DNA of 64,000 nt from the NCBI GenBank assembly GCA_000411415.1, contig KE150450.1, forward strand, positions 45,055-109,054, given 5' to 3'. The position numbers were made by a program, and so were the translations under genes. The notes under the pieces were generated by a model. It was not told where the DNA came from, did not search any database, and saw only the letters and a list, made by a program, of their open reading frames with translations. How positions within the stretch are numbered: the first letter of the stretch is position 1; every line of letters begins with the position of its first letter. This document shows positions 37,216 through 63,837 of this stretch, in pieces. This DNA comes from Actinomyces sp. HPA0247. Lineage in GTDB: Bacteria; Actinomycetota; Actinomycetes; Actinomycetales; Actinomycetaceae.

Positions 37216-40200
37216 TCAGCTCAGGAGGCGCCCCGAATCGGCGAAGTTGTACCACTTCCAGCCGATCCAGTGGCCGCCGGTATACATCGCACCCGAGTCG
37301 GTGCTCAGGTAATACCAGGAACCACGGTCCTGCACCCAACCGGTGGTGAGTGCCCCACTGGGAGCCATGAAGTACCAAGAGGAACCGTCCTTGACCCAGC
37401 CAATCGCCATCGCACCACTACCGGGCATCAGGTAGTACCAGGTGAGGCCATCGAGCAGCCACCCGGTCACCATCCGACCCGATGCCGGATCCAGGTAATA
37501 CCAGGACGCACCGTCCTTCACCCAACCACTCGCCTGAGCACCCGACGCGTCATGGAAGAACCACGAACCGTCCTCACTCACCCAACCAGTACGCATGTAA
37601 CCGTCCGCACCGAAGCGATACGTCGAATTGCCGATCTGCACCGCCTGGCTCGCCGGATAGGTCCCATCCGCATAGCGGTACCACCAGCCGACCGAATCCT
37701 TGATCCACGCACCACCCTGCGGGGCAGGAGCAGGCGTCGGGTCCGGAGTCGGAGCAGGCGTCGGATCGGGCGTGGGAGCCGGAGTCGGGTCCACACTCGG
37801 AGCAGGCATCGGATCACCCTGGAGGCGAACCTCCTGCTTCACGGGGTTGACGCCCCAGTCCCATGCGTACAGGTAGGGGGCCCCCGGGGCCTCGTCGGTG
37901 CGCCCCTGCTTCGCCCACGCGCTCGTGAGCTCGGAGACGGGCACGTCGAAGTGGTAGCGGTGCGTGCCGTCGGCCAGGACCTCACCGTCGTCCTCGACGA
38001 GCTTGCGGTAGTACCAGGCGCCGTCGGCATCCTCGTGGAAGTCGATGCCGGCCACGGGCGAGGCGTCGGTGACGTCGAAGGACACGGTGCGGGCATCGCC
38101 CTCGCCGCTCACCGTCAGGTTGGAGATGACGGGTGCGTTCGTGTCCAGCGTGAACTCGTAGCTCATCTGCTGCGTCTGCGAGGACGGGCCGTCCGTCGCG
38201 GCCTCAATCGTCAGGGTGTAGCGACCGTCGGGCAGCGCGTGACCGGATTCATCAAGCCCATCGAAGAAGGGTTCCTCACCGGAAAACTCGCCCGGTTTTG
38301 TCCAGCCGGTCTCGAGGTCGTAGAGGGACTTGCGCACGCGGTTGATCGTGTAGGAGCGCACAGACTCGCCCGCGGAGTTGCGGTAGGTGAGCGTCATCGA
38401 GGGGACGGAGCGCAGCATGCCGGTCATCGGCGCGATCTTGTCGGGGGCACCCGCCCACTTGGCGCGCGAGGTGATGAGGCGCTGCGTGTTGATCGTGGTG
38501 ACCAGGTTCGAGTCCTGCTTGTCCGACAGCGGGTTGAGCGCGCCCAGCGGGATGGACGAGTGGGCGTTGACCAGCGCGGAACGGTAGACGTGCACGGGCG
38601 TCGTCTCGTCATCCGACCACTTGCCGTCGAAGACATTCGGGGCGCCCCAGGAGCCGTAGAAGCCCAGGTAGGGGACGGTCAGGCTCGGCGTCCCGTCCTC
38701 GCTCGTGAAGGTCACGGCGCCGTCGATGAAGGTTCCCTTGGGCGTGTTCGCCGAGGCGAAGGCCGCGAACTCGGACTCGGGGGTCACCGCGATGCTCACG
38801 GTGGCGGTCGACTTTGCGGGGACCGTGATCTGCTGGGCGTCCCCGGCCTCGGACACGCCATCGCCGGAAAAGGACAGCGAGATGCCCGCGCCCGCCCAGT
38901 TCTGCGAGTGCTCGAGGAAGAGGCCCTCCTCGACCATTTCGGAGAGCGCTTGGCCACCGAGCGTGTATGTGTGGGCGGCGTCGGAGAGGTTGGTCAGGCG
39001 CACCTGGAAGGTCCAACCGTTCGTTCCATCGCCGAGGTCGGCCTTGGGTCGGGAGGTATCGGCGGCTCCGACGACGGTCGGGTAGACGGTCGCGGTGGTG
39101 GCAGCGACCGCGTCAACGGCACCCGCACCAACCTTGCGCGGCGAGTAGTAGGTGCCGTCCCCCAGCTCGACGTCGATGAGCGGGTGGGCGGTGCCCATGA
39201 GGAGGTTGGTAACGACGGCATTCTTCTCCTTGGCGCTCATGCCGGAGAATGCGGGGTCACCCGCGATGCGCTGGCGCACGAGCGCGCTGATGCCGGCGAC
39301 CTGCGGGGAGGCCATCGAGGTGCCCGACAGGCGCTGGTACTCGTTACCGAGGTAGGCGGACATGATGTCGCCGCCGGGGGCCGCGATTTCGGGCTTGAGC
39401 GTCAGGTCGGGGGCCACACCCCACGCCGAGAATTCCGAGGCCGTCGGGTTGTTCGAGGCCAGGACGATACCGGAGTGTGTGACTGTGAGGTACACGTCCG
39501 CGCCGCCCGCGGCGGCCAGCGCCTCGCGGATCGCTTCGCCGTCCTTCTTGGTGATGGTCACCGTGGGCATCGAGGTGGTGGCACCCAGGATCGACTGGTA
39601 GGGCGTGGCCGAGTCGTCAGTGTCGGCGATCATGAGGGCCGCGGGTGTTGACGGGAAGCCCGTCAGGTACGAGGCCTTGAGGTCGTCGGTCATTGCCGTG
39701 CCGGTCCGGGTGTCGGTGCCGCCCTTGTCTTCGAGGACGATCGCGTCGGCGAGGCTCAGTCGGTTGGTGCCCGCGTACTTGTCGAGCTCGTCACCGCCGC
39801 CCGCGCCGGCATCGACGACACGGTAGCTCTTCTCGGGGATGTCACGCAGGCCGCGCACGGCCTCTCCCTGACCGTCGAGCGCGGTGCGGTAGGCGATCTT
39901 ACGGTCCCCTAGGGTCACGTAGGACAGGGCCTCCTGATTGTCGACCGAGGCAACGGCCAGCGTGGACTTGTAGGAGGCAGGCTCTCCGAGCGTGCCCGTG
40001 TCGGGGTCGGTCGCGAACGGCTTGTTCTGGCCACTGTTGTTGCCGTACGCGTTGGAGAATGCGTTGCCCGAAGCGGCGTTGACGGTGATTCCGGCGTCGT
40101 TCAGCGCCTCGTAGACGCCCGCGAAGACGCTGCCGGCGTCGCTGCTCATGCCGGCGTCATCGCCCAGGGAGAGGTTGATGACGTCGGGCTTGATGACGAG

Positions 40201-41172
40201 GGCATCATCGAGGGCGGCCAGGAGGGCGCTATCGGGCATCGATCCGTCCGCGTCGGAGGCCACCTTGGCGACGACGATCTGCGCGTGGGGCGCGGTGCCC
40301 TGCAGGACGTCGGCGTTGGCGGCTGCGATCGCGGTGACGTGCGTGCCGTGGGACAGGTCCTTCTCGGAGTGGGGAACGACGTCAGCGTCGTTGTCGGCGT
40401 AGTCGTAGGCGAAGGGGATCTTGCTGTTGACGTACGTGCCGGAACTACCGTGCGGCAGCTTGCTCGCGAAGGCCTGAACGTCGGCCTGGCTCAGGCGCAC
40501 GTCAACGCCGTCCATCGAGCCGTCGAAGGCGTCGTGGTCGGTCTGCAGTCCGGAGTCGATGACCTCGATGACCTGACGGTCACCCTTCTGGGCAGCCTCG
40601 GCCGCGCGCGTCATTGCCAGGGACGAGGCGTTCTTGAGGACGGGCGCACCCGCGCCATCCGCGCTGGTTTCCAGCGGCTTGTGCACACCCTCGATGAACG
40701 CGACCTTCACGCCCTGGGTCTTCTGGATGGCGGAGAGGGCGGAACCGGGTGCCTCGATGGCGAAGCCGTCGAGCGCATTCGTGTAGTCGCGCACGGTGGT
40801 GACCTGCGCGCCGGGCACGGCCGCCTGAACCGCCGAGGCAATGCGGGCCTTGACCTCGTCGCGCGTGGCCGTTGCAGAGCCGCCGACCGCGCCGTCCTCG
40901 AGCTGGACGATGATCGTCGTCGGGGTGTCGTCAGCCGCCTCCTGCGTAGAGGCGGCGTCAGGCAGGGTCACTCCCCCGGCCTCGGCCTGACGGATGGAGA
41001 GGAGCGGGTCCTCGACGCGCGTGCCCGTGCGCGCCTCGGGGGACGAGGCCTGGGTGGGGTTGGCGGGGAGGACGCCGCCCGGCTGGGGGCTCGCTGCGAG
41101 CGCCGGGACGCTCACGCCGGTCAGGGCGAGGGCGGCGGCGAGTGCGAGTGCCGGGGTGGAGTGATGGGACAT
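37216..41172 (-). CDS. Secreted C5a-peptidase-like subtilase with wall-binding repeats (active type)
   Basis: 1318 aa from ATG 41170-41172; the in-frame extension upstream lacks a ribosome site. Signal peptide residues 1-27, inhibitor I9 prodomain ~80-165, S8 subtilase domain ~195-700. The catalytic set is intact: Asp206 (VIDSGLQ), His275 (LSHGTHVT), oxyanion Asn370 (AASGN) and Ser619 (LSGTSMASPQVAG). A PA-type insert lies at ~440-580 and an Fn3-like domain follows at ~740-870 (TFQVRLTNLSDAAHTYTLGG), as in C5a peptidase and lactocepin. After a PTPAPTPDPTP linker come six or so WYYL repeats (residues ~1160-1318). No LPXTG is present, so attachment is probably non-covalent. It likely cleaves host or bacterial surface proteins. 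Confidence 0.9.
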   Translation of the reverse strand: MSHHSTPALALAAALALTGVSVPALAASPQPGGVLPANPTQASSPEARTGTRVEDPLLSIRQAEAGGVTLPDAASTQEAADDTPTTIIVQLEDGAVGGSATATRDEVKARIASAVQAAVPGAQVTTVRDYTNALDGFAIEAPGSALSAIQKTQGVKVAFIEGVHKPLETSADGAGAPVLKNASSLAMTRAAEAAQKGDRQVIEVIDSGLQTDHDAFDGSMDGVDVRLSQADVQAFASKLPHGSSGTYVNSKIPFAYDYADNDADVVPHSEKDLSHGTHVTAIAAANADVLQGTAPHAQIVVAKVASDADGSMPDSALLAALDDALVIKPDVINLSLGDDAGMSSDAGSVFAGVYEALNDAGITVNAASGNAFSNAYGNNSGQNKPFATDPDTGTLGEPASYKSTLAVASVDNQEALSYVTLGDRKIAYRTALDGQGEAVRGLRDIPEKSYRVVDAGAGGGDELDKYAGTNRLSLADAIVLEDKGGTDTRTGTAMTDDLKASYLTGFPSTPAALMIADTDDSATPYQSILGATTSMPTVTITKKDGEAIREALAAAGGADVYLTVTHSGIVLASNNPTASEFSAWGVAPDLTLKPEIAAPGGDIMSAYLGNEYQRLSGTSMASPQVAGISALVRQRIAGDPAFSGMSAKEKNAVVTNLLMGTAHPLIDVELGDGTYYSPRKVGAGAVDAVAATTATVYPTVVGAADTSRPKADLGDGTNGWTFQVRLTNLSDAAHTYTLGGQALSEMVEEGLFLEHSQNWAGAGISLSFSGDGVSEAGDAQQITVPAKSTATVSIAVTPESEFAAFASANTPKGTFIDGAVTFTSEDGTPSLTVPYLGFYGSWGAPNVFDGKWSDDETTPVHVYRSALVNAHSSIPLGALNPLSDKQDSNLVTTINTQRLITSRAKWAGAPDKIAPMTGMLRSVPSMTLTYRNSAGESVRSYTINRVRKSLYDLETGWTKPGEFSGEEPFFDGLDESGHALPDGRYTLTIEAATDGPSSQTQQMSYEFTLDTNAPVISNLTVSGEGDARTVSFDVTDASPVAGIDFHEDADGAWYYRKLVEDDGEVLADGTHRYHFDVPVSELTSAWAKQGRTDEAPGAPYLYAWDWGVNPVKQEVRLQGDPMPAPSVDPTPAPTPDPTPAPTPDPTPAPAPQGGAWIKDSVGWWYRYADGTYPASQAVQIGNSTYRFGADGYMRTGWVSEDGSWFFHDASGAQASGWVKDGASWYYLDPASGRMVTGWLLDGLTWYYLMPGSGAMAIGWVKDGSSWYFMAPSGALTTGWVQDRGSWYYLSTDSGAMYTGGHWIGWKWYNFADSGRLLS

Positions 41173-41597: not shown

Positions 41598-41615
41598 GGC
41601 AGGCTCAGAGGTGAT

Positions 41616-44600
41616 CTAGCTGATCAGCTGTCCCGTCTCCGAGAATGTGTACCAGGTCCAGAAGATACGCAGCCGACCCGTGGCCATCGCGCCGCTTCCG
41701 GTCTTCAGGTAGTACCAGGCGCCGCCGTCTTTGAGCCACCCCGTCACCATCTTGCCGGTGGAGGGGTTGAGGTAGTACCAGGTCTCACCGTCCTTGACCC
41801 AGCCGGTCGCCATAACGCCCGTAGCGGGATCCAGGTAGTACCAGGAGACGCCGTCGAGGACCCATCCGCTCGCCTGGGCGCCCGAGGCCTTGTGGTAGTA
41901 CCAGGAGCCCTGTTCCTTGACCCAGCCGGTACGCATGTAGCCGCGCGCATCGAAGCGGTAGGTGGCCCCGTCAATGGCAAGGGTCGTGTCGGCCGGGTAG
42001 GTCCCGTCCTCGTAGCGGTACCACCAGCCGCGGCCATCCCGTTTCCACGTTCCCGCCTTCGCGGCGGGGGCGGGAGCGCTCACGTGAATGGTGGCGCTGG
42101 CGGACACGCTGGGCTGCGTCGGGTCGGTCACGGTGATGGTCGCGTCGCCCGCGCCCACCGCACTGACTTCGCCGGTCGCGCTGACGGTTGCCACGGCCTC
42201 GTCCGAGGAGGACCAGGAAAGCTCCGTCACATTGGCGTCCGCGGGTTCGTGGGTGGCGCTCAGCGTCAGCGTCTCACCGACGCGCAGCGTCGCGGACGTC
42301 TGGGAGAGTGCCAGCGACGTCATGGGGATCGCCTTGAGGGCAACCGGAGCCGTCCCCTTGTTGGCGGGCCAGTCCCACACGTGCAGGTAGATGGACGATG
42401 GGTCCCCGCCGATGCTCGTCAGCACGTCCTTCAGTGGGACGTCGAAGTGGCGGTGAACCAGCCCGTCCTCCCCGCGTTCGGTCGGGTAGACCTCGGCTCC
42501 GCGTTCGACGATGGGACCATCAGCGGTGGCCGAGAAACCGACGGCCGATATGGGCGAGGAGTCAGCGACGTCGAAGGAGAGCGTGCGGTCGTTACCGTCA
42601 CCGCTCACCGTCACGTTCGAGATGACGGGGGCCTTGCTGTCCAGCGTGAGACCGTAGCTGATCTGCTGGGTTGAGGGCGAGGGTCCCTCGGTCGTGCCCT
42701 CGATCGTCAGCGTGTAGCGTCCGTCCGGCAGCTCGCTTCCATCGGGCGCGTAGCCGGAGAACCAGGGGTCGCATCCGGGCACAGAGTCCTCGACAGTGCG
42801 CGGCGAGCGCTCCTGCACGTCGTAGATGGACCGATCCGCGCGCCCGCACGTGAAGGTACGGATGGTCTGTCCGGCCTCGTTGGCGAAGGTGTAGGTCAGG
42901 GAGGACACGGAGCGCAGCAGCACGGTGCCCGGGTGCACACCCCTGCGCGCGTTCTCGCCCGTCGAACGGGTGATGATGAAGAGGTCGGGATCGACCCCGT
43001 TGATCATCCGCTCGTCCTCGACATCGAAGGGGCTCTGCTGTCCGAACGGGAGGTTTCCGTCCATGAAGGTCGACCCGTAGCCGCTGATGTGGTTGTTCGG
43101 GGTGACCTGGTCGAAGATGGCGGGCGCGCCCCAGGAGCCGTAGAAGCCCATGTAGGGGACGGTGAGGTTCGGAGCTCCGTCGGTGCTCGTGAAGGTCACG
43201 GCACCGTCGATGAACGTTCCCTTGGGGGTGTTCGCGGCCGCGTACGAGGCGAAGGCCTCGCGCGGGGTCACGGTGACGGTCACGGTGGCCTCCCCCTTGG
43301 CGGGCACGGTCACCGAGTCCGCGGAGAACGTCAGGTCAATGCCCTTCCCCGCCCAGTTGGTCGAGTGGTGCGACAGCAGCATGCTCTCGACCTTTTCGGA
43401 CAGCGCCTGGCCGCCCAGGGTATAGGTGCGCGCACTGTCGGAGACGTTCGTGAGGGTGACCTGGAAGCTCCAGCCGGAGGTGCCCTCACCCAGGTCGGCC
43501 TTGGGACGCGACGGGTTCGCCGCACCAACGACGGTCGGGAACACAAACGAGGTCGTGGCCCCCGCAGCGTCAACCAGGCCGGCACCCACTCGGCGAGGCG
43601 AGTAGAAGGTACCGTCATCCTGCTGCGCGTCCGCGATCGGGCGGGCAGTGCCCATCAGGAGCTTCGTGACAACGGCGTTCTTCTCGGCGTCCGACAGACC
43701 CGCGAAGGCAGGGTCGGATGCCACGCGTTGACGCACGAGGGTAGCGACCGCGGCGGCCTGACCCGAGGCCTCGGCCGTACCGGACTCGTTGTCGTAGTCG
43801 TTTCCGGGCGTGGCGGAGGCGACCCTGCCGCCGGGGGCTGCGACCTCGGGCTTGAGCCGCAGGTCAGGGGTGGCGCCGGTCGAGGAGAAGTCCGACGCGG
43901 ACAGGCCCTCGGGCACGGTGAGGGTCGTGGAGGGAGAGACACTGACCTCGATCGATCCAGTGCCGGAGGCCTTGATAGCGTCGTAGAGCCGGTTGCGATC
44001 CGAGGTCGTGATGGTCCCCATCGGGATGCTAAACCAGCGGTCGACCGACCACTTCACGGGGGTTTCGGTGTCGTACCAGTGGCCGAGCAGAACGCCGGCG
44101 GGCTTGCTCGTCAGGGATTTCAGGGCCTTGATCTTATGCGGGAGTTCCACGTCCTTGCCCCGCGAGTCGGTGCCTCCCAGTTCTTCGAGGAGGATCGTGT
44201 GGGACAGGTCCCCATAGTCCGCGCCCAGGTACTTCGTCAGGTCTTCGCTCGAGCCGTTTCCGGCGTAGACGACGCGGTAGGTTCCCGCGGCAAGAGAGTC
44301 AAAGCCCGGTCCGTCGCCCTTGCCCATGCGGGTCACGGGACGATATCCGATCAGGTGATCGCCGAAGGTGATGGCTCCCATGATCTCCTGCTCGTTGACC
44401 GAGGCGACCGCGAGGGTCGAGGAGAAGGCGGCGGGGAAACCGAGCGCGCCATTGTCCGGGTCGTCCGCGCGCCCATAGCGCTCAACGTCCCCGGCGGGCG
44501 CGTAGACGGTCGTGCCCTGCGCACCGAGGGTCTCATAGACCTGGGAATAGAGAGACGCGGCGGCGTCACTCATTCCTTCGGTCTTGGAAAAAGACACGGA

Positions 44601-45530
44601 GATGACGTCGGGGCGCAGGACCATCGCGTCGTCGAGCGCCGCCAGCAGGTCGACATCGCTGGCGTGATTGCCCGGATCCTTCGTTACCTTCGCGACGATG
44701 AGCTGCGCCTGGGGTGCCGCCCCGGAGAACTGTCCCCCGTTGGCCGCCGCGAGCGCGGCGACGCGCGTGCCCTGGGTGTTCGCAGCGCGCGCATGGTCGT
44801 CTCCTTCGTCCGTGGCGAGCACGTTCGTGTCCCCGTCAGCGTAGTCATAGGCGAAAGGAATCTTGGGGCTGACCCAGACTCCCGCCTTGCCCGCGCCCAG
44901 CTGGGAGGTCAGGGAAGCTGCCGCATCCTGCGTGAGGCGCAGTGACGCGGCATCCATGTCGCCGGCAAAGGCCTCGTGCGAGGTGTCGATACCACTGTCG
45001 ATGAGCTCGATGACCTGGCCCTGCCCCTTCTGGGAGGCCGCGTTGGCTCGCATCATCTGCGCCGCCGCCCCGGGCGTGATGCCGGAGTCTCCACCGCCGG
45101 CAGCGGCGCGGTACTGTCCGTTGATCTCCTCGTCGGTGACGAAGGAGTTGTCTCCATCGAGGAAAGCGCCCTTGACGCCAGCCGTCGCCCGGATCGCACC
45201 GAGAGTCGAGGCAGGTGCCTGGATGGCAAATCCATCGAAGGCGTGGAGGTAGTCGCGCACATCGGAAATGGTGGCGCCCGGACTGGCCGCAGCCACGGCC
45301 TCGCCGATGCGCGTCTTCATCTGCGCGTAGTACGCGGCGCGGTCGACTCCGTCATCACGCGCGTCGAGTTGGACGATGATCGTGCTGGGCGAGTCATCGC
45401 CGGCCTGCTGGGACGACGAGGCCTGGGTTGCGTCGGCGTCGGCCCCGAAGGCCGCGGGCACGCCGGTCGTCGTGAATGCGAGGGCGCCGGCCGCTATCAG
45501 CGTCAGCGCTACGCGTCGGTAGTGGAACAT
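41616..45530 (-). CDS. Secreted subtilase paralogue with lost active site (pseudoprotease), Big2 domain and wall-binding repeats
   Basis: 1304 aa, starting at ATG 45528-45530. Signal peptide ~1-30, I9-like prodomain ~48-125 and S8 fold ~170-660 align well with the neighbouring active protease, but key residues differ. Asp178 is kept (LIDSGID). The catalytic His position is Gln253 (NTQGTRVA for SHGTHV). The oxyanion Asn is Asp348 (APAGD), and the nucleophile Ser is Ala586 (ESGTAEASGQAA). The PA-type insert and Fn3-like domain are retained. A Big2 Ig-like domain (LALSQTSATLRVGETLTLSA) precedes about six WYYL repeats (~1145-1304). The frame is intact, so this is not simple decay; a binding, decoy or regulatory role is possible. 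Confidence 0.88.
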   Translation of the reverse strand: MFHYRRVALTLIAAGALAFTTTGVPAAFGADADATQASSSQQAGDDSPSTIIVQLDARDDGVDRAAYYAQMKTRIGEAVAAASPGATISDVRDYLHAFDGFAIQAPASTLGAIRATAGVKGAFLDGDNSFVTDEEINGQYRAAAGGGDSGITPGAAAQMMRANAASQKGQGQVIELIDSGIDTSHEAFAGDMDAASLRLTQDAAASLTSQLGAGKAGVWVSPKIPFAYDYADGDTNVLATDEGDDHARAANTQGTRVAALAAANGGQFSGAAPQAQLIVAKVTKDPGNHASDVDLLAALDDAMVLRPDVISVSFSKTEGMSDAAASLYSQVYETLGAQGTTVYAPAGDVERYGRADDPDNGALGFPAAFSSTLAVASVNEQEIMGAITFGDHLIGYRPVTRMGKGDGPGFDSLAAGTYRVVYAGNGSSEDLTKYLGADYGDLSHTILLEELGGTDSRGKDVELPHKIKALKSLTSKPAGVLLGHWYDTETPVKWSVDRWFSIPMGTITTSDRNRLYDAIKASGTGSIEVSVSPSTTLTVPEGLSASDFSSTGATPDLRLKPEVAAPGGRVASATPGNDYDNESGTAEASGQAAAVATLVRQRVASDPAFAGLSDAEKNAVVTKLLMGTARPIADAQQDDGTFYSPRRVGAGLVDAAGATTSFVFPTVVGAANPSRPKADLGEGTSGWSFQVTLTNVSDSARTYTLGGQALSEKVESMLLSHHSTNWAGKGIDLTFSADSVTVPAKGEATVTVTVTPREAFASYAAANTPKGTFIDGAVTFTSTDGAPNLTVPYMGFYGSWGAPAIFDQVTPNNHISGYGSTFMDGNLPFGQQSPFDVEDERMINGVDPDLFIITRSTGENARRGVHPGTVLLRSVSSLTYTFANEAGQTIRTFTCGRADRSIYDVQERSPRTVEDSVPGCDPWFSGYAPDGSELPDGRYTLTIEGTTEGPSPSTQQISYGLTLDSKAPVISNVTVSGDGNDRTLSFDVADSSPISAVGFSATADGPIVERGAEVYPTERGEDGLVHRHFDVPLKDVLTSIGGDPSSIYLHVWDWPANKGTAPVALKAIPMTSLALSQTSATLRVGETLTLSATHEPADANVTELSWSSSDEAVATVSATGEVSAVGAGDATITVTDPTQPSVSASATIHVSAPAPAAKAGTWKRDGRGWWYRYEDGTYPADTTLAIDGATYRFDARGYMRTGWVKEQGSWYYHKASGAQASGWVLDGVSWYYLDPATGVMATGWVKDGETWYYLNPSTGKMVTGWLKDGGAWYYLKTGSGAMATGRLRIFWTWYTFSETGQLIS

Positions 45531-54800: not shown

Positions 54801-55278
54801 CCCGACCAGCTACCTGATCGGAACGAGTTTCCTTCGCCGGATCGACAACTGCCACGCCGCCGTCCCCCCACATTTCGGGATAGAAGACCGGCTCACGCTC
54901 CCCGTCGAAGAACGCGTCCTTGACCCCCTGCACACTCTTGATGGCCCCGAGTGCAGACGCGGGAGCGGTGATCGCAAAACCGTCCAGGGCGTGGTGGTAA
55001 TCGCGCACATCCCCGATGGTGCTCCCCGAGGACACCTGGCTGACGGAGCGCGCGATACGCTGCTTGACGTCCCTGTACGCGCCCGCTTGATCGTCGCCGA
55101 CAACGCCCGGCGCAAGCTGGACGATGACGGTGGACGTCCCATCCGCCGCGGTCGCACCGGGCGCCGCAGCCTCGGTACTGTCCGTATCGGCCGCAAACGA
55201 GGGCGCCACGCTCATGGCCGTGATAGCGAGGGCGCCAGTGGCGACTAACGCCAGCGCCGACAAACGTCGATGACACAT
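51847..55278 (-). CDS. Secreted short subtilase paralogue with lost active site (pseudoprotease), Big2 domain and wall-binding repeats
   Basis: 1143 aa. ATG 55276-55278 is chosen because GGAAGTGAG lies six bases upstream; a TTG two codons earlier is less likely. Signal peptide ~1-30, I9-like prodomain ~48-125, S8 fold ~160-500. Asp169 (VIDASFD) and His244 (AHGTRMA) are kept. The oxyanion Asn is Asp339 (APAGD) and the nucleophile Ser is Gly424 (MPGTGEASAQVA). The PA-type insert present in the relatives is absent. The Fn3-like region, a Big2 domain (LALSQTDATLSVGESVGLSA) and about six WYYL repeats follow. Frame is intact over the full length. Confidence 0.88.
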   Translation of the reverse strand: MCHRRLSALALVATGALAITAMSVAPSFAADTDSTEAAAPGATAADGTSTVIVQLAPGVVGDDQAGAYRDVKQRIARSVSQVSSGSTIGDVRDYHHALDGFAITAPASALGAIKSVQGVKDAFFDGEREPVFYPEMWGDGGVAVVDPAKETRSDQVAGRGRGRVIEVIDASFDTSHEAFAGTMDTAALRLPQAEMESLTSQLDAGQGGAWVSDKIPFVYDYADRDTNTSIGYGYGPQDFTVHAHGTRMAALAAANGATYQGSAPDAQLILAKVLSNSTRTVRDSDLLAALDDAMVLKPDTVCVSFMANRDLDGEASALYDDVFARLSGAGITVDAPAGDSGRAEWRTGVRDLGAIGAPASYSSVLAVAAVGGSTLQGTDGLAPWSSSSWGPGPDMRLKPEIAAPGGNVNAAIPGNDYRRMPGTGEASAQVAGVAALVRQRMATDPMFAGLSDEDKSALVPSFLMGTARPIVDTSAADGAFWSPRWVGAGMVDAQAATTSSVYPSVVGASDPSRPKAELGESTSGWTFQVRLTNLSDTAHTYTLGGQALSENVTGLLYAKHSTNWAGRGIDLTFSADTVTVPAASSATVAVSVNPTPQFASIVSEKTPKGTFIDGAVTFTSADGQPDLTVPYLGFYGSADETPIFDSPVYGEGTIGTSTMTFHGLTLGQLNPFDVEEAAAISTNDRHLYIVSRSTEENARTYATPATVLLRDVMSLTYTYRNEAGDVVRSYTLGGAPKSRTVFNGRYSEVSTAEATFGSQPIFDGYDEQGRALADGRYTLTIEGTTGGASPRTERLTHVVTVDTAPPVISNVKISGEGDDRKLSFDATDSSPIAAYGFSWSADGEPFMREKVYGSDEHGDDGQHGGHFEVPLSQIAERSGGDPATVYLQVWDWPVNKGTVKVDLKPVPMTSLALSQTDATLSVGESVGLSATHEPADASVTDVVWSSSNEAVATVSQDGTVTAVGAGEATVTVYDPTQPSLVSASATIHVSAPAPAHKAGTWKRNGRGWWYRYDDGSYPSGESVVIDGNVYRFDASGYMRTGWVLDGGQWYYHAASGAQASGWLLSGVHWYYLSPQTGVMATGWVKVGATWYYLSPSNGAMATGWLKEGGHWYYLNRPSGAMATGWLRIWGTWYHFADNGQLIA

Positions 55279-55531: not shown

Positions 55532-56038
55532 TTAAATAGGGCCTGTTGGGGGAGGAGGAGAAAGCCGTATCACTGGGCCTGTGTGCAAGTTGTTGACGGT
55601 TTGTTTGTGCGGCTGTTCTCCAGGCCGCTTGGTGTAGTTCGTATTCGATGGGGATTTGCCGCCGAGGCTGGTGTGGATGCGGCGGCGGTTGTAGAAGTCT
55701 TCGATCCAGGTGGCGACCCCGGTGTAGACCTGGTCGCGGGTGGTGAAGGCGCGCCGGTAGTAGTACTCGGTTTTGAGGGTGGCCCAAAAGGATTCGGCCA
55801 TGGCGTTATCCCAGCACACTCCGGCCTGCCCCATCGACACGGTTCCTTTCACGGCGCGCATGTAGTCGGCTAGCTTCTGGGAGGTGAACTGTGTTCCCCG
55901 ATCAGCGTGGAGCACGACCCCACGGGGGAAGCCACCACGGGTGGTAGCGGCCATGTCGAGCGCGGTGATGACCAGGTCGGTGCTTTGCTGCTCACCCATG
56001 GCGTATCCGAGCACTCTACGCGAGTGCGCATCGCGGGG
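55532..56038 (-). pseudogene. IS3-family transposase (OrfB), C-terminal remnant
   Basis: About 168 residues of the integrase core remain: SRRVLGYAMG, then HADRGTQFTSQKLADYM with the second catalytic Asp, and CWDNAMAESFWATLKTEYYY with the catalytic Glu. The region with the first Asp and the N-terminal helix-turn-helix is gone, cut at the junction with the IS256 element. It cannot be active. The IS150-like subgroup is suggested by the GVCWDNAMAESF pattern. Confidence 0.85.
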
Positions 56039-56086
56039 CATGTTTAATTGTCTGTGTATCCGTCTTTTGTTTGAAAGGATTGATGC

Positions 56087-57220
56087 ATGATGAATGATGA
56101 TGTTGTTGTGGCTCGCGCTAGTGGGCGTGAGGCTATGGAGGACCTGCGTCGCTCGGGGGCGTTGGATGCGTTGTTTGAACGTCTTGATGCTGGCGAGGTC
56201 GAGATGACGGGCAGCCAGGGATTGTTGCCCGCGTTGCTCAAGGAGGCGTTGGAGTGCGGGTTGGCTGCTGAGCTTTCTGAGCATTTGGGGTATGAGAAGG
56301 GCCAGACCAGCGCGCAGGCGCGCTCGAACACGAGGAACGGCACGACGAAGAAGACCGTGATGTCGGAGGTGGGAGCCTTCAAGATCGAGGTCCCCGGGAC
56401 CGGGCAGGCTCATTCACCCCGCGCCTGGTACGCAAAGGACAGCGGCGCCTCGATGGCTTGGATTCAATGATTATCAGCTTGTACGCCGGGGGGATGACGG
56501 TACGCGATATCCGCCATCACCTGGCTTCGACCATCGGCGTGGAGGTCAGTGCCGCAACGATTTCCACGATCACTGAGGCGGTGTGCGACGCTGTCTTGGA
56601 GTGACAGCACCGCCCCTTAGAAGCGTTCTACCCGGTGATCTACCTGGACACGATCCGCATCAAAATCCGAAGCGATCACACGGTGGAGAACCGGGCCGCT
56701 CACCTGGCGGTCGGAGTGGACATGGAGGGCGTCAAGCACGTGCTGGGCATCTGGGTCCAAGCCGATGAAGGCGCGGCTTTATGGGCCCACGTGTGCGCCG
56801 AGCTGGCCAACCGGGGCGTGCGCGATGTCCTGATCGTGTGCTTCGACGGATTGGCTGGTCTGCTCGAAGCCATTGAAGCGCGCCTGGCAGCGTTTCACGC
56901 CGTTCTTAGCGTTCCCGCCCATGGCGCGCCGCGTCGTGTACACCACCAACGCTATCGAGTCCTTGAACTACCAGCTGCGCAAAATCACTAAGAATCGCGG
57001 GCATTTCCCCAGCGAAGAAGCCGCCGTCAAACTCTTGCGGCTCGCCATCTGCGACATCGAAGACAAACGAGCTGCCCAGCGCCTCACAGACGCAGGAAAA
57101 CCCGCCAACAAACGAACAGCCCCCACACGCCTCATCCAAGGACACACCACCACCAACTGGAAACAAGCCCTCACCCAACTCACCACCGCCTACCCCGACC
57201 GAATCACCCCCTACCTCTAA
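56087..57220 (+). pseudogene. IS256-family (mutator) transposase pseudogene
   Basis: Three separate lesions are visible. A one-base deletion near 56394 shifts frame: the proper reading ...SFTPRLVRKGQRRLDGLDSMIIS continues in another frame. A TGA at 56602-56604 replaces the Trp codon in VLE-W-QHRPLEAFYPVIYLD. A deletion of roughly 80 codons near 56880 joins DVLIVCFDGLAGLLEAIEA to AWQRFTPFLAFPP in a shifted frame. The C-terminus (RRVVYTTNAIESLNYQLRK) is intact. Catalytic Asp residues remain in VIYLD and VCFDG, but the protein cannot be made. Confidence 0.9.
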
Positions 57221-57270: not shown

Positions 57271-57305
57271 GCCCGCGCCCCCGGAGATTCTCCGGGGGCG
57301 CGGGC
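57271..57305 (-). terminator. Terminator of the 2170-aa protease-LRR gene
   Basis: GCCCGCGCCCCCGGAGA and TCTCCGGGGGCGCGGGC form a perfect stem of 15 or more pairs, 20 bases past the stop. It has the same core as the hairpins at 37162, 48797 and 51784. Confidence 0.8.
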
Positions 57306-57324: not shown

Positions 57325-60300
57325 TCAGCCGTTCCACTGTCCAGACTCGTTGAAGTAGTACCACTTCCAGCCAATCCAATGACCACCGGTATACATCGCG
57401 CCCGAGTCAGTGCTCAGGTAGTACCAGGAGCCGCCATCCTTCAGCCAACCGGTCGTCAGCGCACCGCTGGGGGCCATGAAGTACCAGGAGGAGCCGTCCT
57501 TGACCCAGCCGGTCGCCATCGCGCCGCTTCCCGGCGTCAGGTAGTACCAGGTCGGACCATCAAGTAGCCAACCACTGGCCATCTGTCCGGTCGCCGGGTC
57601 CAGGTAGTACCACGCGGAACCGTCTTTGATCCAGCCGCTCGCCTGAGCGCCAGACGGATTGTGGAAGTACCACGCGCCATTCTCACTCGCCCAGCCGGTG
57701 TGCATGTAGCCATCCGCGCCAAAGCGATAGGTGGAGCCTCCGAGCTGTACCGTCTTGTTCGCCGGATAGGTGCCATCCGCATAGCGGTACCACCAGCCAA
57801 CAGAGTCACTGATCCACTGGCCTCCCTGCGGGGTAGGAGCAGGAGACGGGTCCGGCGTCGGCTCAGGCGCGGGCGTCGGCTCAGGCGCCGGAGTCGGATC
57901 CGGCGAGGGCGCGGGCGTCGGGTCCGGCGTACCCGGCAGCTTAATCACGAGGGTGCTCGTCAGGTAGGAGGCGTCGCGCACTTGAACCCGCAGACTCACG
58001 TCCGCTCCCGACGGGGTCCACGGGAAGGTCACGGAGGAGGCCGCGGCACGGTCCCCGCCGTCCGCCACCGTCGTCCAGTCGCGCACGAGCGTCTCGGTGC
58101 CGTCCGCGCTGATCTGCACGGCGCGCACCTGCTGCGTCCCGGCGATGCCACCGGCAATCTCAGCCGTCACGTCGACCGACGCGCCGACCTCGCCCGTGTA
58201 CGTGTACGCTCCCCCGGCCTCGGCAATGCCAGCCCCGGACAGGGTCATCGACGCAGCCGTGAACGTGTGCAGGTGCGAGGCGTCGATGCCGGCCGCCTCG
58301 AGGGCGTCCTTGGCGACATTCCACGCCGGCTCCCCCTCGGCCGCGGCGACGTACACGTGGGTGTCGTCCTTCTTCTCGTCGCTCAGCTCCGGCTCGAGGT
58401 CAAGGCGGGTGAGCGTGGAGGGCAGGACGAGGACGCGCGGGACGTCCACGCCGAAGGACACGCGGGTCATGCCCTCGCCGAAGTAGGCGCTCTGGCGGCG
58501 TCCGTTCGTCGGGCGACCGTCGTACACGAAGGAGCCGTCCACGCCGCCGCGCACGACGATGCGACGAGGCATGGGAACCCAGCTGCCTTCCATGCGGATC
58601 GAGGTCACCTTGGAGCCGTACTCGACGAGCTCCAGGGAGTTGCCGACGACGCCGCTCGAGCGCTCGACCGATTCCGGGATGACCAGCTCAGTCAGGGCGG
58701 TGGTTCCCGCAAAGGCATCGTCACCGATGGCCTTCAGGCCCTCGGGCAGGACGACGCGGGTGAGCGTCTTGTTGTTGGCGAACGCGCTCGCGCCGATCTC
58801 GACCGTGCCCGCGCGCACCGTGTAGTCGGTGAGCGTATTGGCGGCCGGGGACAGCATCAGGTGCAGGCCATCGTCCGCCTTGCGGTACAGGACGTTGCGC
58901 TCGGCCGAGTACACCGGGTTATCGGCGGATACGGTCAGCGTCGCGATCTTGCGGTCGTTGTACAGGGCGGTCTCGGCGAAGGAGGTGACGCCCGCTCCGA
59001 TATGGAACGAGGTCAGGGCTGTGCTCTCCGAGAAGGCCTGCTCACCGACCGTGGTCACCGAGTCCGGCAGGGTCACAGACGACTGCGCCGTGCGGCTGAA
59101 CGCAAAGTCGCCGATCGTCGTGAGGCGGCCGAGCTCGGGCCGGAAGTTGACCCCTTCCTTGGCACTCGTGGACTCGAAGGCGCTGCCGCCCAGGGAGATC
59201 GTGCCACCCAGGTCGATGCGCGCGAGCTTGTCGGCGGAGCAGAAGGCGCAGGTGCCGACCGTCTCGAACTTCTCGGGCAGGGCAACGGCGGTGAGCGCGG
59301 AGAGGCGGAAGGCCTCGTCCCCGATCGAGCGCAGGCTGTCGGGCAGGGTCACAGAGGTGATGCCCGCCTTCTGGAATGCCTTGGGCGCGATCGTCGTGAC
59401 ACCGTCCAGGACCGTGTACGTGCCTCCCGTGTTCTTGGCGGCCGGGTACAGGATCAGGCGCGAGTGGTCCTTGGAGTACAGGACACCGTCAACACTCTCG
59501 AAGTTCGGGTTCGCAGGATCGACCTCGACGCTGGTCAGCGCGGTGGTCTCGGCGTAGCCCGAGGTCACCGAGTCGGCGGCGACGTTGGGCCCCAGCTTGA
59601 TCGTCGTGAGTGCCGAGTTGTAATCGAAGACCTCCGCGCCAATCGTCACCACGGAGCGCGGAAGCTCAATGGACTCCAGGCTCGTGTTGGCGAATGCGCG
59701 GTCGGCGATCTTGGTCAGCTGGGCCGGGTGGGCCTCGTCGTCAACAAAGGTGATCTTCTTCAGCGAGCTGTAGATGAAGGCCTCCAGGCCGATCGAGCGC
59801 ACCGAGGCGGGGACCGTCACGGACTCCACGGTGGAGCTCGCGAAGGCGCGCTCGCCGATGGAGGTCACGGTGTCGGGCAGCGTGACCTCGGTGGCCGAGC
59901 CCTTGTACTTCACGAGGACGCCGGCCTCGTCGATCTCGAAGTCGTCGGCGTCAGCGGCGCGCACCGTAACCGGGATGGACGCGCTCTTAGTAGCGCCAGC
60001 CTCGGTGGTGACGGTGGCGGTCAGCGTGCCCGAACCAGCGTGATCGCCGGCGGTCAGGGTCGCCTTGCGCGTGTCTGCGTCGGCGGCGACCGTGGCCAGG
60101 TCGGCCGGCTCCACGCTCCACGTCACCGCGCGGTCCTTCAGCGAGGGCGCCAGGTATACCTTCACGGGGGCGGTCTCGCCCACCTTGACGCTCACCTGGG
60201 TGTCAGCGAGCTCGATGCCCGCATCCTCGGAGATGGTGCGCACGCGGATCTGGGCGCTGGCCGACAGGGTCGGCTGGGACGCGTCGGTCGCGGTGATCGT

Positions 60301-63300
60301 CGCCTCGCCGGCGGCCAGGGTCCGGACCTCGCCGTTTTCGTTCACGGTGGCCACGGCCTCGTTCGAGGACGTCCATACGAGGTCGATGACATTCGCGTTC
60401 GCCGGCTCGTACGAGGGGCTCAGCGTGACCGTCTCGCCCGCGACGACCTCGGAGTCCTGCGGGGTGAGGGTCAGGGAGGTCATCGGGATCGTGCTGAAGC
60501 GGATCACCTGGCGGGCCTGGTTCTTACCCCAGTCCCACGCGAACAGGTAGGCGGTCGCCGGGTCGGAGGAGTCCGCGCGGTCGATGAGGTCTGCCCACTT
60601 GATCTCGTAGTGCTTGGCGTAAGTACCGTCGGCCTGGCGGTTCGCACCCACGGCCTCCTTCTCGTCGTAGTAGCGACGCGAGGTCGGAGACTCAGAGAAA
60701 GCGATGCCGGCCAGCGGCGAGTTGTCGGTGACGTCGAAGGAGACGACACGATCGTCGCCCTCGCCGGTCACGGCCAGGTTGGAGATGACGGGAGCCTGGG
60801 TATCCAGGGTGAAGTCCCAGGTCAGCTGCGAGGCAACACTCGAGGGCGCGACCGATGCCGCATCGATCGTCAGCTTGTAGCGGCCTGCGGGCAGCTCCTT
60901 GCCATCCTTGTCGAAGCCGTCGAAGACCGGGTTGTTGCCTTCCTGGCTTTCAATGGGCTCGACCTTGCTGGCGTGGTAGTTGAACAGGGACTTGCGGGCG
61001 CGCTCGAAGGTGTACTCACGCACCACCTCGCCGGCCTCGTTCGTGTAGGTGTAGGTCACCTTCGGGGAGTTACGCAGCAGGCAGGTGCGCGGCAGGATGC
61101 GCGAGGGGGCCTCGGGCAGCGCGGAGCGGGACATGATGAAGTACGCAGGGTCGACCGCGCGCACGTCGTCGATTTCCTGTCCGACGAGGGGATTCAGGGC
61201 ACCCAGGGGTACCTCGGTCGAGGGGTTCATGAGGGTCGAGGAGCATGCGTGCGCCGTGCTCGTCGTGCCGTCGTACCACTTACCGTCGAAAACGGCAGGC
61301 GCGCCCCAGGAGCCGTAGAAGCCCATGTAGGGGACGGTCAGGTCGGGCTGTCCGTCGGCGCTGGTGAAGGTGACGGCGCCGTCGATAAACGTGCCCTTGG
61401 GAGCGTTCTCATTCGCGTACGAGGAAAAGGCCGAGCGCGGGGTCACGGTGACCGTCACGGTCGCAGTGCCCTTGGCAGGCACGGTCACCGAGTCGGCGGA
61501 GTAGGTCAGGTCGATGCCCTGACCCGCCCAGTTCTTGGAGTGCTCGGTGAACAGGCCACCCTCGACGATCTCTGAGAGCGCCTGGCCGCCCAGGGTGTAC
61601 GTGTGGTCGGCGTCGGAGACGTTCGTCAGGGTGACCTGGAAGGTCCACCCGTTCGTACCCTCACCGAGGTCGGCCTTGGGGCGCCACGGGTTCTCGGCGC
61701 CCGCGACGCTCGGGTACACGGTCGTGGTCGTGGCAGCGAGGGCATCCACCTGGCCTGCACCCACGCGGCGCGGCGAGTAGTAGGTGCCATCGTTCTGGTC
61801 GATGTCGAGCAGCGGGTGGGCGGTGCCCATCATGAGGGTGGTGACAATCGCGGCCTTGTCCGCCTCCGACAGGCCGGCGAATGCCGGGTCGTCGTTCACG
61901 CGCTGGCGCACGAGCGTAGCAATGCCCGCGACCTGCGGGGTCGCCATGGACGTGCCCGACATGGACCGGTACGTGTTGCCCAGGACGGCGGCAACGATGT
62001 TGCCACCGGGGGCCGCGATCTCCGGCTTGAGCTTGAGATCGGGCGTGACACCCCACGAGGTGAAGTCGGAGACCGACGGGTTGGTCGAGGCGAGCTTCAG
62101 GCCCGCGTGCGGATTGGAGATCGTGATGGAGCCGGACTCGCTGGCCTTGATGGCCTCGATGAGCGCGTCCTTCTCCTTCTTCGTGATGGTCACGGTCGGC
62201 ATCGTGTGGGTGGTTTCAATGGTCGCCACGTAGGGGTTTTCGACCACCTCGGAGTCGCCGATGATGAGGGCGGCGGGCTTGGAGGTCAGCTGGGTGAGTC
62301 CCTTGACCTTGGCCTCGTGGGTCATGTCCGCGCCCGTCGCACTGTCGGAGCCGCCGCGGTCTTCGAGGACGATGACCTTCGACAGGTCGCCGGGGTGCTC
62401 GGCGACGAGCTTCTCGAGTGCGGCCGCGTCACCGATGCCCGCGTAGACGAGGGTGTAGGTGGCCTCGGGGATGTCGAGGAGGCTCGGCACGACGGCGTCC
62501 TTGAGGCCGCGCGACTTGCGGTAGACGACCTGGCGGTCGCCCACCGTCAGGTAGGGCAGGGCGTCCTGGTTGTTGACCGAGGCGACGGCCAGGGTCGAGG
62601 CGTAGGACCCGGGCTCGGAGACCGTGCCGGCGTCGGGGTCGGTAGCAAACGGCTTGTTCTTGCCGCTGTAGTTGGAGTATGCGCTGGAGTAGGAGTTACC
62701 CGCGGCGGCGTTGACGGTCACGCCGGCGGCAGCGAGGTTCTTGTAGACCTCCGCGTACATGGTTCCGGCCTCGGTGCCCATACCCGCGTCCTCGCCGAGG
62801 GAGAGGTTGATCGAGTCGGGCTTAATGACGACCGCGTCGTCAAGGGCCGCCAGGACAGTGTTGTCGGGGATCGATCCATCCTTGTCGGAGGCGACCTTAG
62901 CGACGATGATCTGCGCGTGGGGCGCGGTGCCCTGCAGGTCGGCCGCGTTGGCGGCGGCGATCGCAGCGACGTGGGTGCCGTGCGACAGGTCCTTGCTGGA
63001 CTTGGGCAGCACGTCCGCGTCGTTATCCGCGTAGTCGAAGACGAAGGGGATCTTGTTGTTGAGGTAGGCACCGGTCTTGCCGTGCGGCAGCTTGCCGACA
63101 AGGGCCTCGACGTCCCCCTGGCTCAGGCGCACGTCGACGCCATCCATGGAGCCGGAGAACGCCTGGTGGGTGGCCTCGATGCCCGTGTCGATGACCTCGA
63201 CGACCTGATGATCCCCCTTCTGGGTGGTCTGGTTCGCGCGCGTCATCTCCAGGGAGGAGGCGTTTTGCAGGGCGGGATCCACGGCCTCGGAACCCAGCGC

Positions 63301-63837
63301 GCCCGCGTCCCCCTCGACGACCATGGGCTTGTGGTGGCGCTCAATGAACGCGGCCTTGACGCCCTCGGTCGCCTTGATGGCGTCCAGGGACGAGGCCGGG
63401 GCTTGGATCGCGAAACCGTCCAGTGCGTGCGTGTAGTCGCGCACATCGGTGATGTCCGCACCGGGGACCACTGCCTCGACCGAGGTTTCGATGCGGTCCT
63501 TGACCGTCTCGTGCTTGGTTGAGGACGACAGGCCGAAGACCCGCTGGTACCACGGGATTCCGACTGAGCCGTCCTCGAGCTGGACGATGATCGTCGTCGG
63601 GGTGTCGTCGGCGGGGACGGTCTCGGGGGTGGCGGTCGGGTTCGGGGCCCCGGCCTCGTCGGCAGCTCCCGACTGCGGGGTGCCGGACTGGGCGTCGACG
63701 GACGAGGCGGGGGCGGGGGTGCCCGACTGGCTTTCCTCGGGGCTGTTGGCCGCGAAAGCCGCCGGGGTGGTCACGGCGGTCATGGCAAGGGTGCCCGCGG
63801 TTAGCAGCACCAATGCCGAGGTTGTGCGATGGGACAT
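57325..63837 (-). CDS. Giant secreted subtilase fused to Ig-like, BspA LRR and wall-binding modules
   Basis: 2170 aa, ATG 63835-63837. Signal peptide 1-30, a Pro/Ser-rich stretch ~31-75, I9 prodomain ~78-165, S8 domain ~205-710. The active site is intact: Asp217 (VIDTGIE), His286 (LSHGTHVA), Asn381 (AAAGN) and Ser630 (MSGTSMATPQVAG). A PA-type insert (~440-590) and Fn3-like region (~740-880) resemble C5a peptidase. Then come a Big2 domain (~1130-1210, LTLTPQDSEVVAGETVTLSP), a second Ig-like domain, LRR_5 repeats (~1300-1800), a beta-rich domain, a PTPAPEP linker and about seven WYYL repeats. It combines modules found separately in the other five cluster genes. It is probably both an adhesin and a protease. 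Confidence 0.9.
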   Translation of the reverse strand: MSHRTTSALVLLTAGTLAMTAVTTPAAFAANSPEESQSGTPAPASSVDAQSGTPQSGAADEAGAPNPTATPETVPADDTPTTIIVQLEDGSVGIPWYQRVFGLSSSTKHETVKDRIETSVEAVVPGADITDVRDYTHALDGFAIQAPASSLDAIKATEGVKAAFIERHHKPMVVEGDAGALGSEAVDPALQNASSLEMTRANQTTQKGDHQVVEVIDTGIEATHQAFSGSMDGVDVRLSQGDVEALVGKLPHGKTGAYLNNKIPFVFDYADNDADVLPKSSKDLSHGTHVAAIAAANAADLQGTAPHAQIIVAKVASDKDGSIPDNTVLAALDDAVVIKPDSINLSLGEDAGMGTEAGTMYAEVYKNLAAAGVTVNAAAGNSYSSAYSNYSGKNKPFATDPDAGTVSEPGSYASTLAVASVNNQDALPYLTVGDRQVVYRKSRGLKDAVVPSLLDIPEATYTLVYAGIGDAAALEKLVAEHPGDLSKVIVLEDRGGSDSATGADMTHEAKVKGLTQLTSKPAALIIGDSEVVENPYVATIETTHTMPTVTITKKEKDALIEAIKASESGSITISNPHAGLKLASTNPSVSDFTSWGVTPDLKLKPEIAAPGGNIVAAVLGNTYRSMSGTSMATPQVAGIATLVRQRVNDDPAFAGLSEADKAAIVTTLMMGTAHPLLDIDQNDGTYYSPRRVGAGQVDALAATTTTVYPSVAGAENPWRPKADLGEGTNGWTFQVTLTNVSDADHTYTLGGQALSEIVEGGLFTEHSKNWAGQGIDLTYSADSVTVPAKGTATVTVTVTPRSAFSSYANENAPKGTFIDGAVTFTSADGQPDLTVPYMGFYGSWGAPAVFDGKWYDGTTSTAHACSSTLMNPSTEVPLGALNPLVGQEIDDVRAVDPAYFIMSRSALPEAPSRILPRTCLLRNSPKVTYTYTNEAGEVVREYTFERARKSLFNYHASKVEPIESQEGNNPVFDGFDKDGKELPAGRYKLTIDAASVAPSSVASQLTWDFTLDTQAPVISNLAVTGEGDDRVVSFDVTDNSPLAGIAFSESPTSRRYYDEKEAVGANRQADGTYAKHYEIKWADLIDRADSSDPATAYLFAWDWGKNQARQVIRFSTIPMTSLTLTPQDSEVVAGETVTLSPSYEPANANVIDLVWTSSNEAVATVNENGEVRTLAAGEATITATDASQPTLSASAQIRVRTISEDAGIELADTQVSVKVGETAPVKVYLAPSLKDRAVTWSVEPADLATVAADADTRKATLTAGDHAGSGTLTATVTTEAGATKSASIPVTVRAADADDFEIDEAGVLVKYKGSATEVTLPDTVTSIGERAFASSTVESVTVPASVRSIGLEAFIYSSLKKITFVDDEAHPAQLTKIADRAFANTSLESIELPRSVVTIGAEVFDYNSALTTIKLGPNVAADSVTSGYAETTALTSVEVDPANPNFESVDGVLYSKDHSRLILYPAAKNTGGTYTVLDGVTTIAPKAFQKAGITSVTLPDSLRSIGDEAFRLSALTAVALPEKFETVGTCAFCSADKLARIDLGGTISLGGSAFESTSAKEGVNFRPELGRLTTIGDFAFSRTAQSSVTLPDSVTTVGEQAFSESTALTSFHIGAGVTSFAETALYNDRKIATLTVSADNPVYSAERNVLYRKADDGLHLMLSPAANTLTDYTVRAGTVEIGASAFANNKTLTRVVLPEGLKAIGDDAFAGTTALTELVIPESVERSSGVVGNSLELVEYGSKVTSIRMEGSWVPMPRRIVVRGGVDGSFVYDGRPTNGRRQSAYFGEGMTRVSFGVDVPRVLVLPSTLTRLDLEPELSDEKKDDTHVYVAAAEGEPAWNVAKDALEAAGIDASHLHTFTAASMTLSGAGIAEAGGAYTYTGEVGASVDVTAEIAGGIAGTQQVRAVQISADGTETLVRDWTTVADGGDRAAASSVTFPWTPSGADVSLRVQVRDASYLTSTLVIKLPGTPDPTPAPSPDPTPAPEPTPAPEPTPDPSPAPTPQGGQWISDSVGWWYRYADGTYPANKTVQLGGSTYRFGADGYMHTGWASENGAWYFHNPSGAQASGWIKDGSAWYYLDPATGQMASGWLLDGPTWYYLTPGSGAMATGWVKDGSSWYFMAPSGALTTGWLKDGGSWYYLSTDSGAMYTGGHWIGWKWYYFNESGQWNG

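What the first reader, a model, noticed from the sequence alone, without database searches (positions are those of the whole stretch)
37216..63837. Six-gene modular surface locus mixing active proteases, dead proteases and LRR adhesins
Six genes on one strand share a signal peptide type, WYYL wall-binding C-termini and near-identical GC-rich terminators. The modules are combined differently: S8-Fn3-WYYL; dead S8-Fn3-Big2-WYYL (twice); LRR-WYYL; Ig2-LRR-WYYL; and S8-Fn3-Big2-Ig-LRR-WYYL. This looks like a locus that makes new surface proteins by recombination between shared modules. It is the best candidate in the window for an undescribed system, perhaps interspecies attachment and processing in dental plaque.
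Basis: partly seen in the sequence, partly recalled or inferred. Interest (0 to 1): 0.75.

Follow-up and report, generated by a model that had tools for sequence, protein, structure and literature searches.

The report
Choline-anchored surface proteins with exchanged tails
An oral-type actinomycete carries a row of six surface proteins built from shared parts, two of them former proteases that lost their catalytic residues but are still kept by selection, and related species differ in which of the six they carry, with signs that the genes recombine through their shared wall-binding ends.

Summary
The six-gene locus is real: two intact subtilases (g1, g6), two inactive ones (g2, g5) and two LRR proteins (g3, g4), all ending in choline-binding repeats. 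Nine of 12 fetched relatives (Schaalia odontolytica group) have the locus at the same site, with differing gene content. G005/G006 g3 has the g2 end and downstream flank; G020 g1 and g6 share a 604-nt block at 96%; window g1 has a g4-like tract of about 125 nt at its end. The S8, Fn3 and LRR bodies show no recent exchange in the window, and the long g6 layout is old. Inactive subtilases: Ser lost in 9 of 9 copies, dN/dS of the S8 domain 0.13-0.22. A Lic-1-like locus is present and co-occurs with the repeats in 35 genomes. No sign of a programmed system was seen. Binding, activity, expression and within-species variation were not testable. New variant of a known kind.

The parts
37216..41172 (-). 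g1: secreted S8 subtilase with intact D/H/N/S, fn3_5, choline-binding tail (listed ORF runs to 41238)
39187..40581 (-). S8 domain of g1
37219..37722 (-). choline-binding tail of g1; most of it like g1 of other species
37113..37238 (-). g4-like tract (last codons, stop, terminator) with g1-like DNA on both sides
37162..37196 (-). terminator stem-loop of g1, identical to that of g4
41616..45530 (-). g2: inactive S8 (His->Gln, Asn->Asp, Ser->Ala), fn3_5, Big_2, choline-binding tail (listed ORF runs to 45644)
43578..45026 (-). inactive S8 domain of g2
41619..42062 (-). choline-binding tail of g2; its relatives form the end of g3 in G005 and G006
45732..48347 (-). g3: signal peptide, BspA-type LRR_5, choline-binding tail
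48867..51659 (-). g4: Big_2, BspA-type LRR_5, choline-binding tail
48797..48831 (-). terminator stem-loop of g4, identical to that of g1
51847..55278 (-). g5: inactive S8 (Asn->Asp, Ser->Gly), fn3_5, Big_2, choline-binding tail (listed ORF runs to 55284)
53917..54801 (-). inactive S8 domain of g5; lacks a long stretch that g1, g2 and g6 have
55532..57220 (.). degraded IS3-like (rve) and Mutator-type transposase pieces between g5 and g6
57325..63837 (-). g6: S8 with intact D/H/N/S, fn3_5, Big_2, LRR_5, choline-binding tail; old layout
61753..63213 (-). S8 domain of g6
58303..60009 (-). LRR region of g6 (boundary set by hand)
57328..57831 (-). choline-binding tail of g6
57271..57305 (-). terminator stem-loop of g6, close to those of g1 and g4

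Best explanation
A chromosomal array of choline-binding surface proteins in an actinomycete of the Schaalia odontolytica group. Each protein is secreted by a signal peptide and held on the wall by C-terminal choline-binding repeats, most likely on phosphocholine made by a Lic-1-like locus elsewhere in the genome (genes shown, binding inferred). g1 and g6 are intact cell-envelope subtilases and probably cut surface or host proteins (inferred). g2 and g5 form one clade that lost catalysis and are kept under purifying selection as non-catalytic binding proteins (loss and selection shown, binding inferred). g3 and g4 are BspA-type LRR adhesins (inferred from family). The array grows, shrinks and is re-tailed by ordinary homologous recombination through the similar 3' ends (products shown, process inferred). 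One product is a g3 body with the g2 end and g2 downstream flank, as expected if g2 was deleted by crossing over between neighbouring tails; the reverse order of events is not excluded.
For: Domains. Same site in 9 of 12 fetched relatives, with variable content. S8-Fn3 bodies: g1 (8 rows), g6 (9), g5 (3) and g2+g5 (9) are starred clades in a 38-row tree. Last 50 codons of 40 tails: grouping by gene is rejected for g1 (AU p 6e-4), g6 (4e-7) and g2 (0.005). Local alignments: G005 g3 and G026 g2 88% from 265 nt before to 248 nt after the CDS end, while G005 g3 and G026 g3 align only to the stop; G020 g1/g6 96% over 604 nt; G018 BL1/g6 90% over 550 nt including 250 nt of flank; G022 g1 and a second tail 100% over 558 nt; window g1 g4-like from about -19 to +105, g1-like on both sides. 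Maximum chi-square: 0 of 1000 shuffles in six triplets that stand for three events, not significant in four control triplets. Inactive residues: Ser lost in 9 of 9 g2/g5 rows, D/H/N/S intact in 29 of 29 others. dN/dS of S8: g2 0.13-0.16 (3 species), g5 0.14 and 0.22 (2), g1 0.10-0.17 (6), g6 0.07-0.19 (7). Lic genes; co-occurrence with the repeats in 35 genomes: 16 both, 4 repeats only, 4 Lic only, 11 neither, Fisher p 0.0024, kinship ignored.
Against: Choline binding, proteolysis and adhesion were not tested. In the last-50-codon tree g3 is not rejected as one group (p 0.12), and in the first part of the CBD none of g1, g2, g3, g6 is rejected (27 of 41 tails could be anchored, the hybrids not among them). 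The triplets were chosen after seeing odd tails, and repeats can be aligned out of register. An earlier tail tree gave stronger rejections but was spoiled by unequal repeat numbers and is not relied on. Window g1 is closer to g1 of other species over most of its CBD. Repetitive ends can be misassembled: G022 and G001 are fragmented, but G006, G013, G018 and G020 are single contigs and G005 has two. One genome per species, so no rate. Eight of 35 genomes break the Lic-repeat pattern. No structure was predicted.
Confidence: 0.75

Rival explanations
1. A dedicated diversification system: the locus is organised so that recombination between modules continually makes new surface proteins.
For: Variable content and hybrid ends between species.
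Against: All six window genes are complete and no partial cassettes were seen. Bodies show no low-divergence tracts between window paralogues. Only transposase remnants were identified in the locus; recombinases were not searched for. No within-species data.
Confidence: 0.1
2. A static array of old duplicates with loss but no exchange.
For: Bodies cluster by gene; the first part of the CBD does not reject grouping by gene.
Against: Last 50 codons reject grouping for g1, g6 and g2; long near-identical blocks between paralogues in G020, G018 and G022, and g2 flank behind g3 in G005 and G006.
Confidence: 0.08
3. g2 and g5 are decaying pseudogenes of proteases.
For: Catalytic residues lost; g5 also lost a long stretch.
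Against: Long open frames in several species; dN/dS of the dead S8 0.13-0.22, near that of active g1; the changed motif GT[AG]EAS is itself kept in 9 of 9 rows.
Confidence: 0.04
4. The hybrids are assembly errors at repetitive ends.
For: G022 contigs break at the tails.
Against: Hybrids also lie in G005 (2 contigs), G006, G018 and G020 (single contigs); G005 and G006 show the same hybrid.
Confidence: 0.06

Closest known systems
Pneumococcal choline-binding proteins, notably PcpA (LRR plus choline-binding repeats), CbpJ and CbpF
   Same: Choline-binding repeats at the C-terminus; g3 matches PcpA (4cp6), CbpJ (6jyx) and CbpF (2v04) by sequence; variable presence of several CBPs among strains is stated for pneumococcus in PMC3218663 (passages seen)
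   Different: An actinomycete; S8 and dead S8 modules carry the choline-binding tail; genes stand in one array with exchanged ends
Cell-envelope proteinases (C5a peptidase, chemokine protease C / SpyCEP, SGO_0316 family)
   Same: S8 plus fn3_5; g2 body matches C5a peptidase (7edd, 1xf1) and chemokine protease C (5xxz)
   Different: Choline-binding tail; 174-250 bits against the NF040553 cut-off of 1400; two of four are catalytically dead
CspC and CspA pseudoproteases of Clostridioides difficile
   Same: Subtilases kept after loss of catalytic residues; CspC has Gly at the Ser position, as g5 has (PMC6636752, passages seen)
   Different: Another subfamily (23-41 bits against 675 for NF040808); here secreted and wall-bound; separate origin is inference
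BspA-type LRR proteins
   Same: LRR_5 in g3, g4, g6
   Different: Choline-binding anchor; fused to S8 in g6
Choline-binding proteins of Actinomyces odontolyticus XH001
   Same: PMC6166536 (passages seen) says that CBP genes of XH001 rose with the epibiont TM7x, citing He et al. 2015 (not read)
   Different: The passages seen do not describe this locus, dead subtilases or exchange of ends; whether these genes are among the induced ones is unknown

Membership tests
choline-binding protein | choline-binding repeats at the C-terminus | tested here: met
   6 of 6 over Pfam cut-offs
choline-binding protein | organism has phosphocholine (Lic-1) genes | tested here: met
   LicC-LicA-type fusion, EamA transporter, two LicD; genes only, no chemistry
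choline-binding protein | protein released from cells by choline | not testable with these tools
   needs a bench test
cell-envelope proteinase (C5a peptidase-like) | S8 followed by fn3_5 | tested here: met
   g1, g2, g5, g6; PDB matches for g2
cell-envelope proteinase (C5a peptidase-like), g1 and g6 | catalytic Asp-His-Ser and oxyanion Asn | tested here: met
cell-envelope proteinase (C5a peptidase-like), g2 and g5 | catalytic Asp-His-Ser and oxyanion Asn | tested here: not met
   so g2 and g5 are not filed as proteases
SGO_0316/0317 LPXTG-anchored serine peptidase (NF040553) | curated family score | tested here: not met
   174-250 bits against 1400
BspA-type LRR protein | LRR_5 over cut-off | tested here: met
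   g3, g4, g6
CspC-type pseudoprotease (NF040808) | curated family score | tested here: not met
   23-41 bits against 675
programmed antigenic variation locus | silent partial cassettes beside an expression site | tested here: not met
   six complete genes, no partial copies seen in the window locus
programmed antigenic variation locus | dedicated recombinase | not tested
   no search was made for one
programmed antigenic variation locus | variation among clones of one strain | not testable with these tools
   one genome per species is held

The most novel reading that the evidence does not exclude
The shared choline-binding end plus terminator acts as a common docking cassette and recombination hotspot: it lets these actinomycetes delete, fuse and re-tail surface proteins while always keeping them on the wall. 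The conserved dead subtilases are surface receptors or decoys made out of proteases, and the resulting repertoire sets which partners (other plaque bacteria, or Saccharibacteria epibionts such as TM7x) can attach.
Probability: 0.15. Interest if true: 0.75.

Novelty: new variant of a known kind. Interest (0 to 1): 0.5.

Why it matters
It shows a pneumococcus-like set of choline-anchored surface proteins in an oral-type actinomycete, next to a Lic-1-like locus in the same genome, protease domains turned into conserved non-enzymes, and readable products of exchange between neighbouring genes. If the proteins mediate attachment, the variable content could explain partner differences between close species, and gene removals in a laboratory strain would test that directly.

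Tried and rejected
Rejected: one operon (each gene has its own stem-loop after the stop; the promoter scan gave 4 sites against 2.3 expected and says nothing). Rejected: g6 as a late chimera (the same S8-fn3-LRR body stands in Rubneribacter, Berryella, an Actinomycetaceae MAG and G008; by eye G012, Rubneribacter and an Eggerthellaceae MAG end in a membrane-type tail; Berryella has CW_binding_2). Rejected: recent exchange of bodies between window paralogues.

Withdrawn: the tail tree. It cut the last 420 nt of each gene, so tails with different repeat numbers were out of register (near-identical g3 of G005 and G006 fell apart). It was replaced by the two trees and the local alignments, which narrowed the claim to the later part of the CBD and the terminator; confidence went from 0.78 to 0.75. 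The CBD values for tails of unequal length are not used either.

Led nowhere: structure prediction (not completed), so no fold comparison; a regex survey of the Ser motif in 83 S8 frames of the named loci (76 matched) was too crude and is not used. Literature searches: (0 papers; 3; 4; 37, 10 listed; 11; 124, 15 listed; 434, 12 listed; 0; 1), 72 (137, 15 listed); none of the listed titles describes this locus. The library is open-licence PubMed Central only.
Full report
What is there. Six minus-strand genes fill 37216-63837. In order of transcription they are g6, g5, g4, g3, g2, g1. Pfam gives S8-fn3_5-CBD (g1), S8-fn3_5-Big_2-CBD (g2, g5), LRR_5-CBD (g3), Big_2-LRR_5-CBD (g4) and S8-fn3_5-Big_2-LRR_5-CBD with two Big_2 stretches (g6), the CBD being Choline_bind_3/1 repeats.

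Who carries it. A search of 35 genomes of the genus with g2 found matches at E 1e-30 or better in 15, the window's own included; I fetched the places of 12 of the 14 relatives (G021 and G030, with weak matches, were left). No tool names the window's own species. In G001, G005, G006, G013, G018, G020, G022, G023 and G026 the same two flanks are found beside the locus (a gene that I take from its sequence for a permease, and an upstream stretch; in G022 on separate contigs); in G007, G008 and G012 they were not found in the stretches fetched.

Gene content differs. The window has six genes. G023 and G026 have g6, g3, g2, g1. G005, G006 and G013 have g6, g3, g1. G018 has g6 and two Big-LRR genes and no g1. 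G020 has g6, g3, g2, g5, two Big-LRR genes and a g1 whose frame is split in the Fn3 part. G022 has g5, g4, g3, g2, g1 on several contigs and no g6. G001 is fragmented. G007 and G008 have a long g6-like protein and one LRR gene; in G012 only the long protein was seen.

The long protein is old. The S8-fn3-LRR body occurs in Rubneribacter, Berryella (with CW_binding_2), an Actinomycetaceae MAG and G008. G012 has the same body but no match for choline-binding repeats or for the LicC-LicA fusion, and a membrane-type tail by eye. So the body is kept and the anchor changes. In a tree of 38 S8-Fn3 rows the g2 and g5 copies form one clade (100/100) beside g6 (96/95), with g1 outside them. This fits duplication followed by loss of the LRR part and, once, of catalysis; the order is inference. 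g3 and g4 bodies were not placed in a tree.

Dead subtilases. The Ser is Ala in 6 of 6 g2 rows and Gly in 3 of 3 g5 rows; the other 29 of 29 rows keep Asp, His, Asn and Ser. The His is lost in 6 of 6 g2 rows and kept in 3 of 3 g5 rows; the Asn is lost in 8 of 9 (G020 g2 keeps it). dN/dS of the S8 domain against the window copy is 0.13-0.16 for g2 (three species), 0.14 and 0.22 for g5 (two), 0.10-0.17 for g1 (six) and 0.07-0.19 for g6 (seven). They are kept, not decaying. CspC of C. difficile is a precedent for a subtilase that works without catalysis (PMC6636752, passages).

Recombination. A first tail tree was spoiled by unequal repeat numbers. In the corrected trees, the last 50 codons of 40 tails reject grouping by gene for g1 (AU p 6e-4), g6 (4e-7) and g2 (0.005) but not for g3 (0.12), although g3 of G005, G006 and G013 fall among the g2 tails (97/94). 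The first part of the CBD, anchored in 27 tails, rejects none of g1, g2, g3, g6. So the exchange lies mainly towards the 3' end. Local alignments show the products. G005 g3 and G006 g3 match G026 g2 at 88-89% from 227-265 nt before the CDS end to about 248 nt behind it, whereas they match g3 of G026 over the body and no further than the stop; G013 g3 is colinear with that of G005 (88% over 1756 nt) and may share the origin. G020 g1 and g6 share 604 nt at 96%, after bodies of about 40-55%. G018 BL1 and g6 share 550 nt at 90%, 250 nt of flank included. G022 g1 and a second tail are identical over 558 nt, in a draft. Window g1 matches g1 of G026 at 88% up to 19 nt before the CDS end and again from 102 nt behind it; the tract between is g4-like (92% over 104 nt). 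The maximum chi-square was reached by 0 of 1000 shuffles in six triplets, which stand for three events chosen because they looked odd, and was ordinary in four control triplets. Where tails have equal length, silent divergence of the CBD is 1.8-2.4 times that of the S8 domain for g1 (five species) and g6 (two), and 0.9-2.2 times the body value for g2, g3 and g5 (lengths). Bodies of window paralogues are diverged at silent sites in every 100-codon window (lowest pS 0.34).

Anchor. The genome has a LicC-LicA-type fusion with a winged helix, an EamA transporter, two LicD and glycosyltransferases together. In 35 genomes the fusion and the repeats co-occur: 16 both, 4 repeats only (G008, 70% complete; G010, G019, G021 with four matches or fewer), 4 Lic only, 11 neither (Fisher p 0.0024, kinship ignored). 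PMC10434233 (passages) reports Lic-1 enzymes in A. viscosus and A. gerencseriae. Attachment to phosphocholine is the likeliest reading; it was not tested.

Function. By family g1 and g6 should be surface proteases, g3 and g4 adhesins, g2 and g5 non-catalytic binders. PMC6166536 (passages) states that choline-binding protein genes of A. odontolyticus XH001 rise with the epibiont TM7x, citing He et al. 2015, which I did not read; a role of this locus there is speculation.

Verdict. The recombination idea holds for gene number and for the 3' ends; a programmed system is not shown. New variant of a known kind.

Noticed in passing
window 55532-57220: Degraded IS3-like (rve) and Mutator-type transposase pieces between g5 and g6.
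   Followed up: partly
window 36873-37087 and 41326-41539: Direct repeats (80 nt at 89%, 127 nt at 76%) flank g1; one copy lies downstream of g1, the other downstream of g2.
   Followed up: no
G000:C1:744000-763900 (L157): A second cluster of S8 plus choline-binding proteins; relatives show different numbers of S8 matches there.
   Followed up: no
L156:6128-13212: Lic-1-like locus with a winged helix-LicC-LicA-type fusion, EamA transporter, two LicD genes and glycosyltransferases.
   Followed up: yes
L071 (G001:C2 end): g2 of G001 has silent divergence 0.20 from the window copy, while its g6 (0.61) and permease (0.62) are far more distant: transfer between species or contamination (assembly 84% complete).
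   Followed up: partly
L072:10462-15042: In G001 the g6 protein lacks the LRR part (1527 aa) and separate LRR frames follow it; assembly error or real rearrangement not resolved.
   Followed up: no
L067:2606-6720: g1 of G020 is split into two overlapping frames in the Fn3 part.
   Followed up: no
L158:4430-7321: GH66 protein with CBM_6 and ricin-type lectin matches, outside the window.
   Followed up: no
L081, L083, L086, L094: Records titled Sanguibacter keddieii 250_SKED and Xylanimonas cellulosilytica 352_XCEL carry this locus (identical probes to same-genus G022 and G023) and are probably misnamed.
   Followed up: partly
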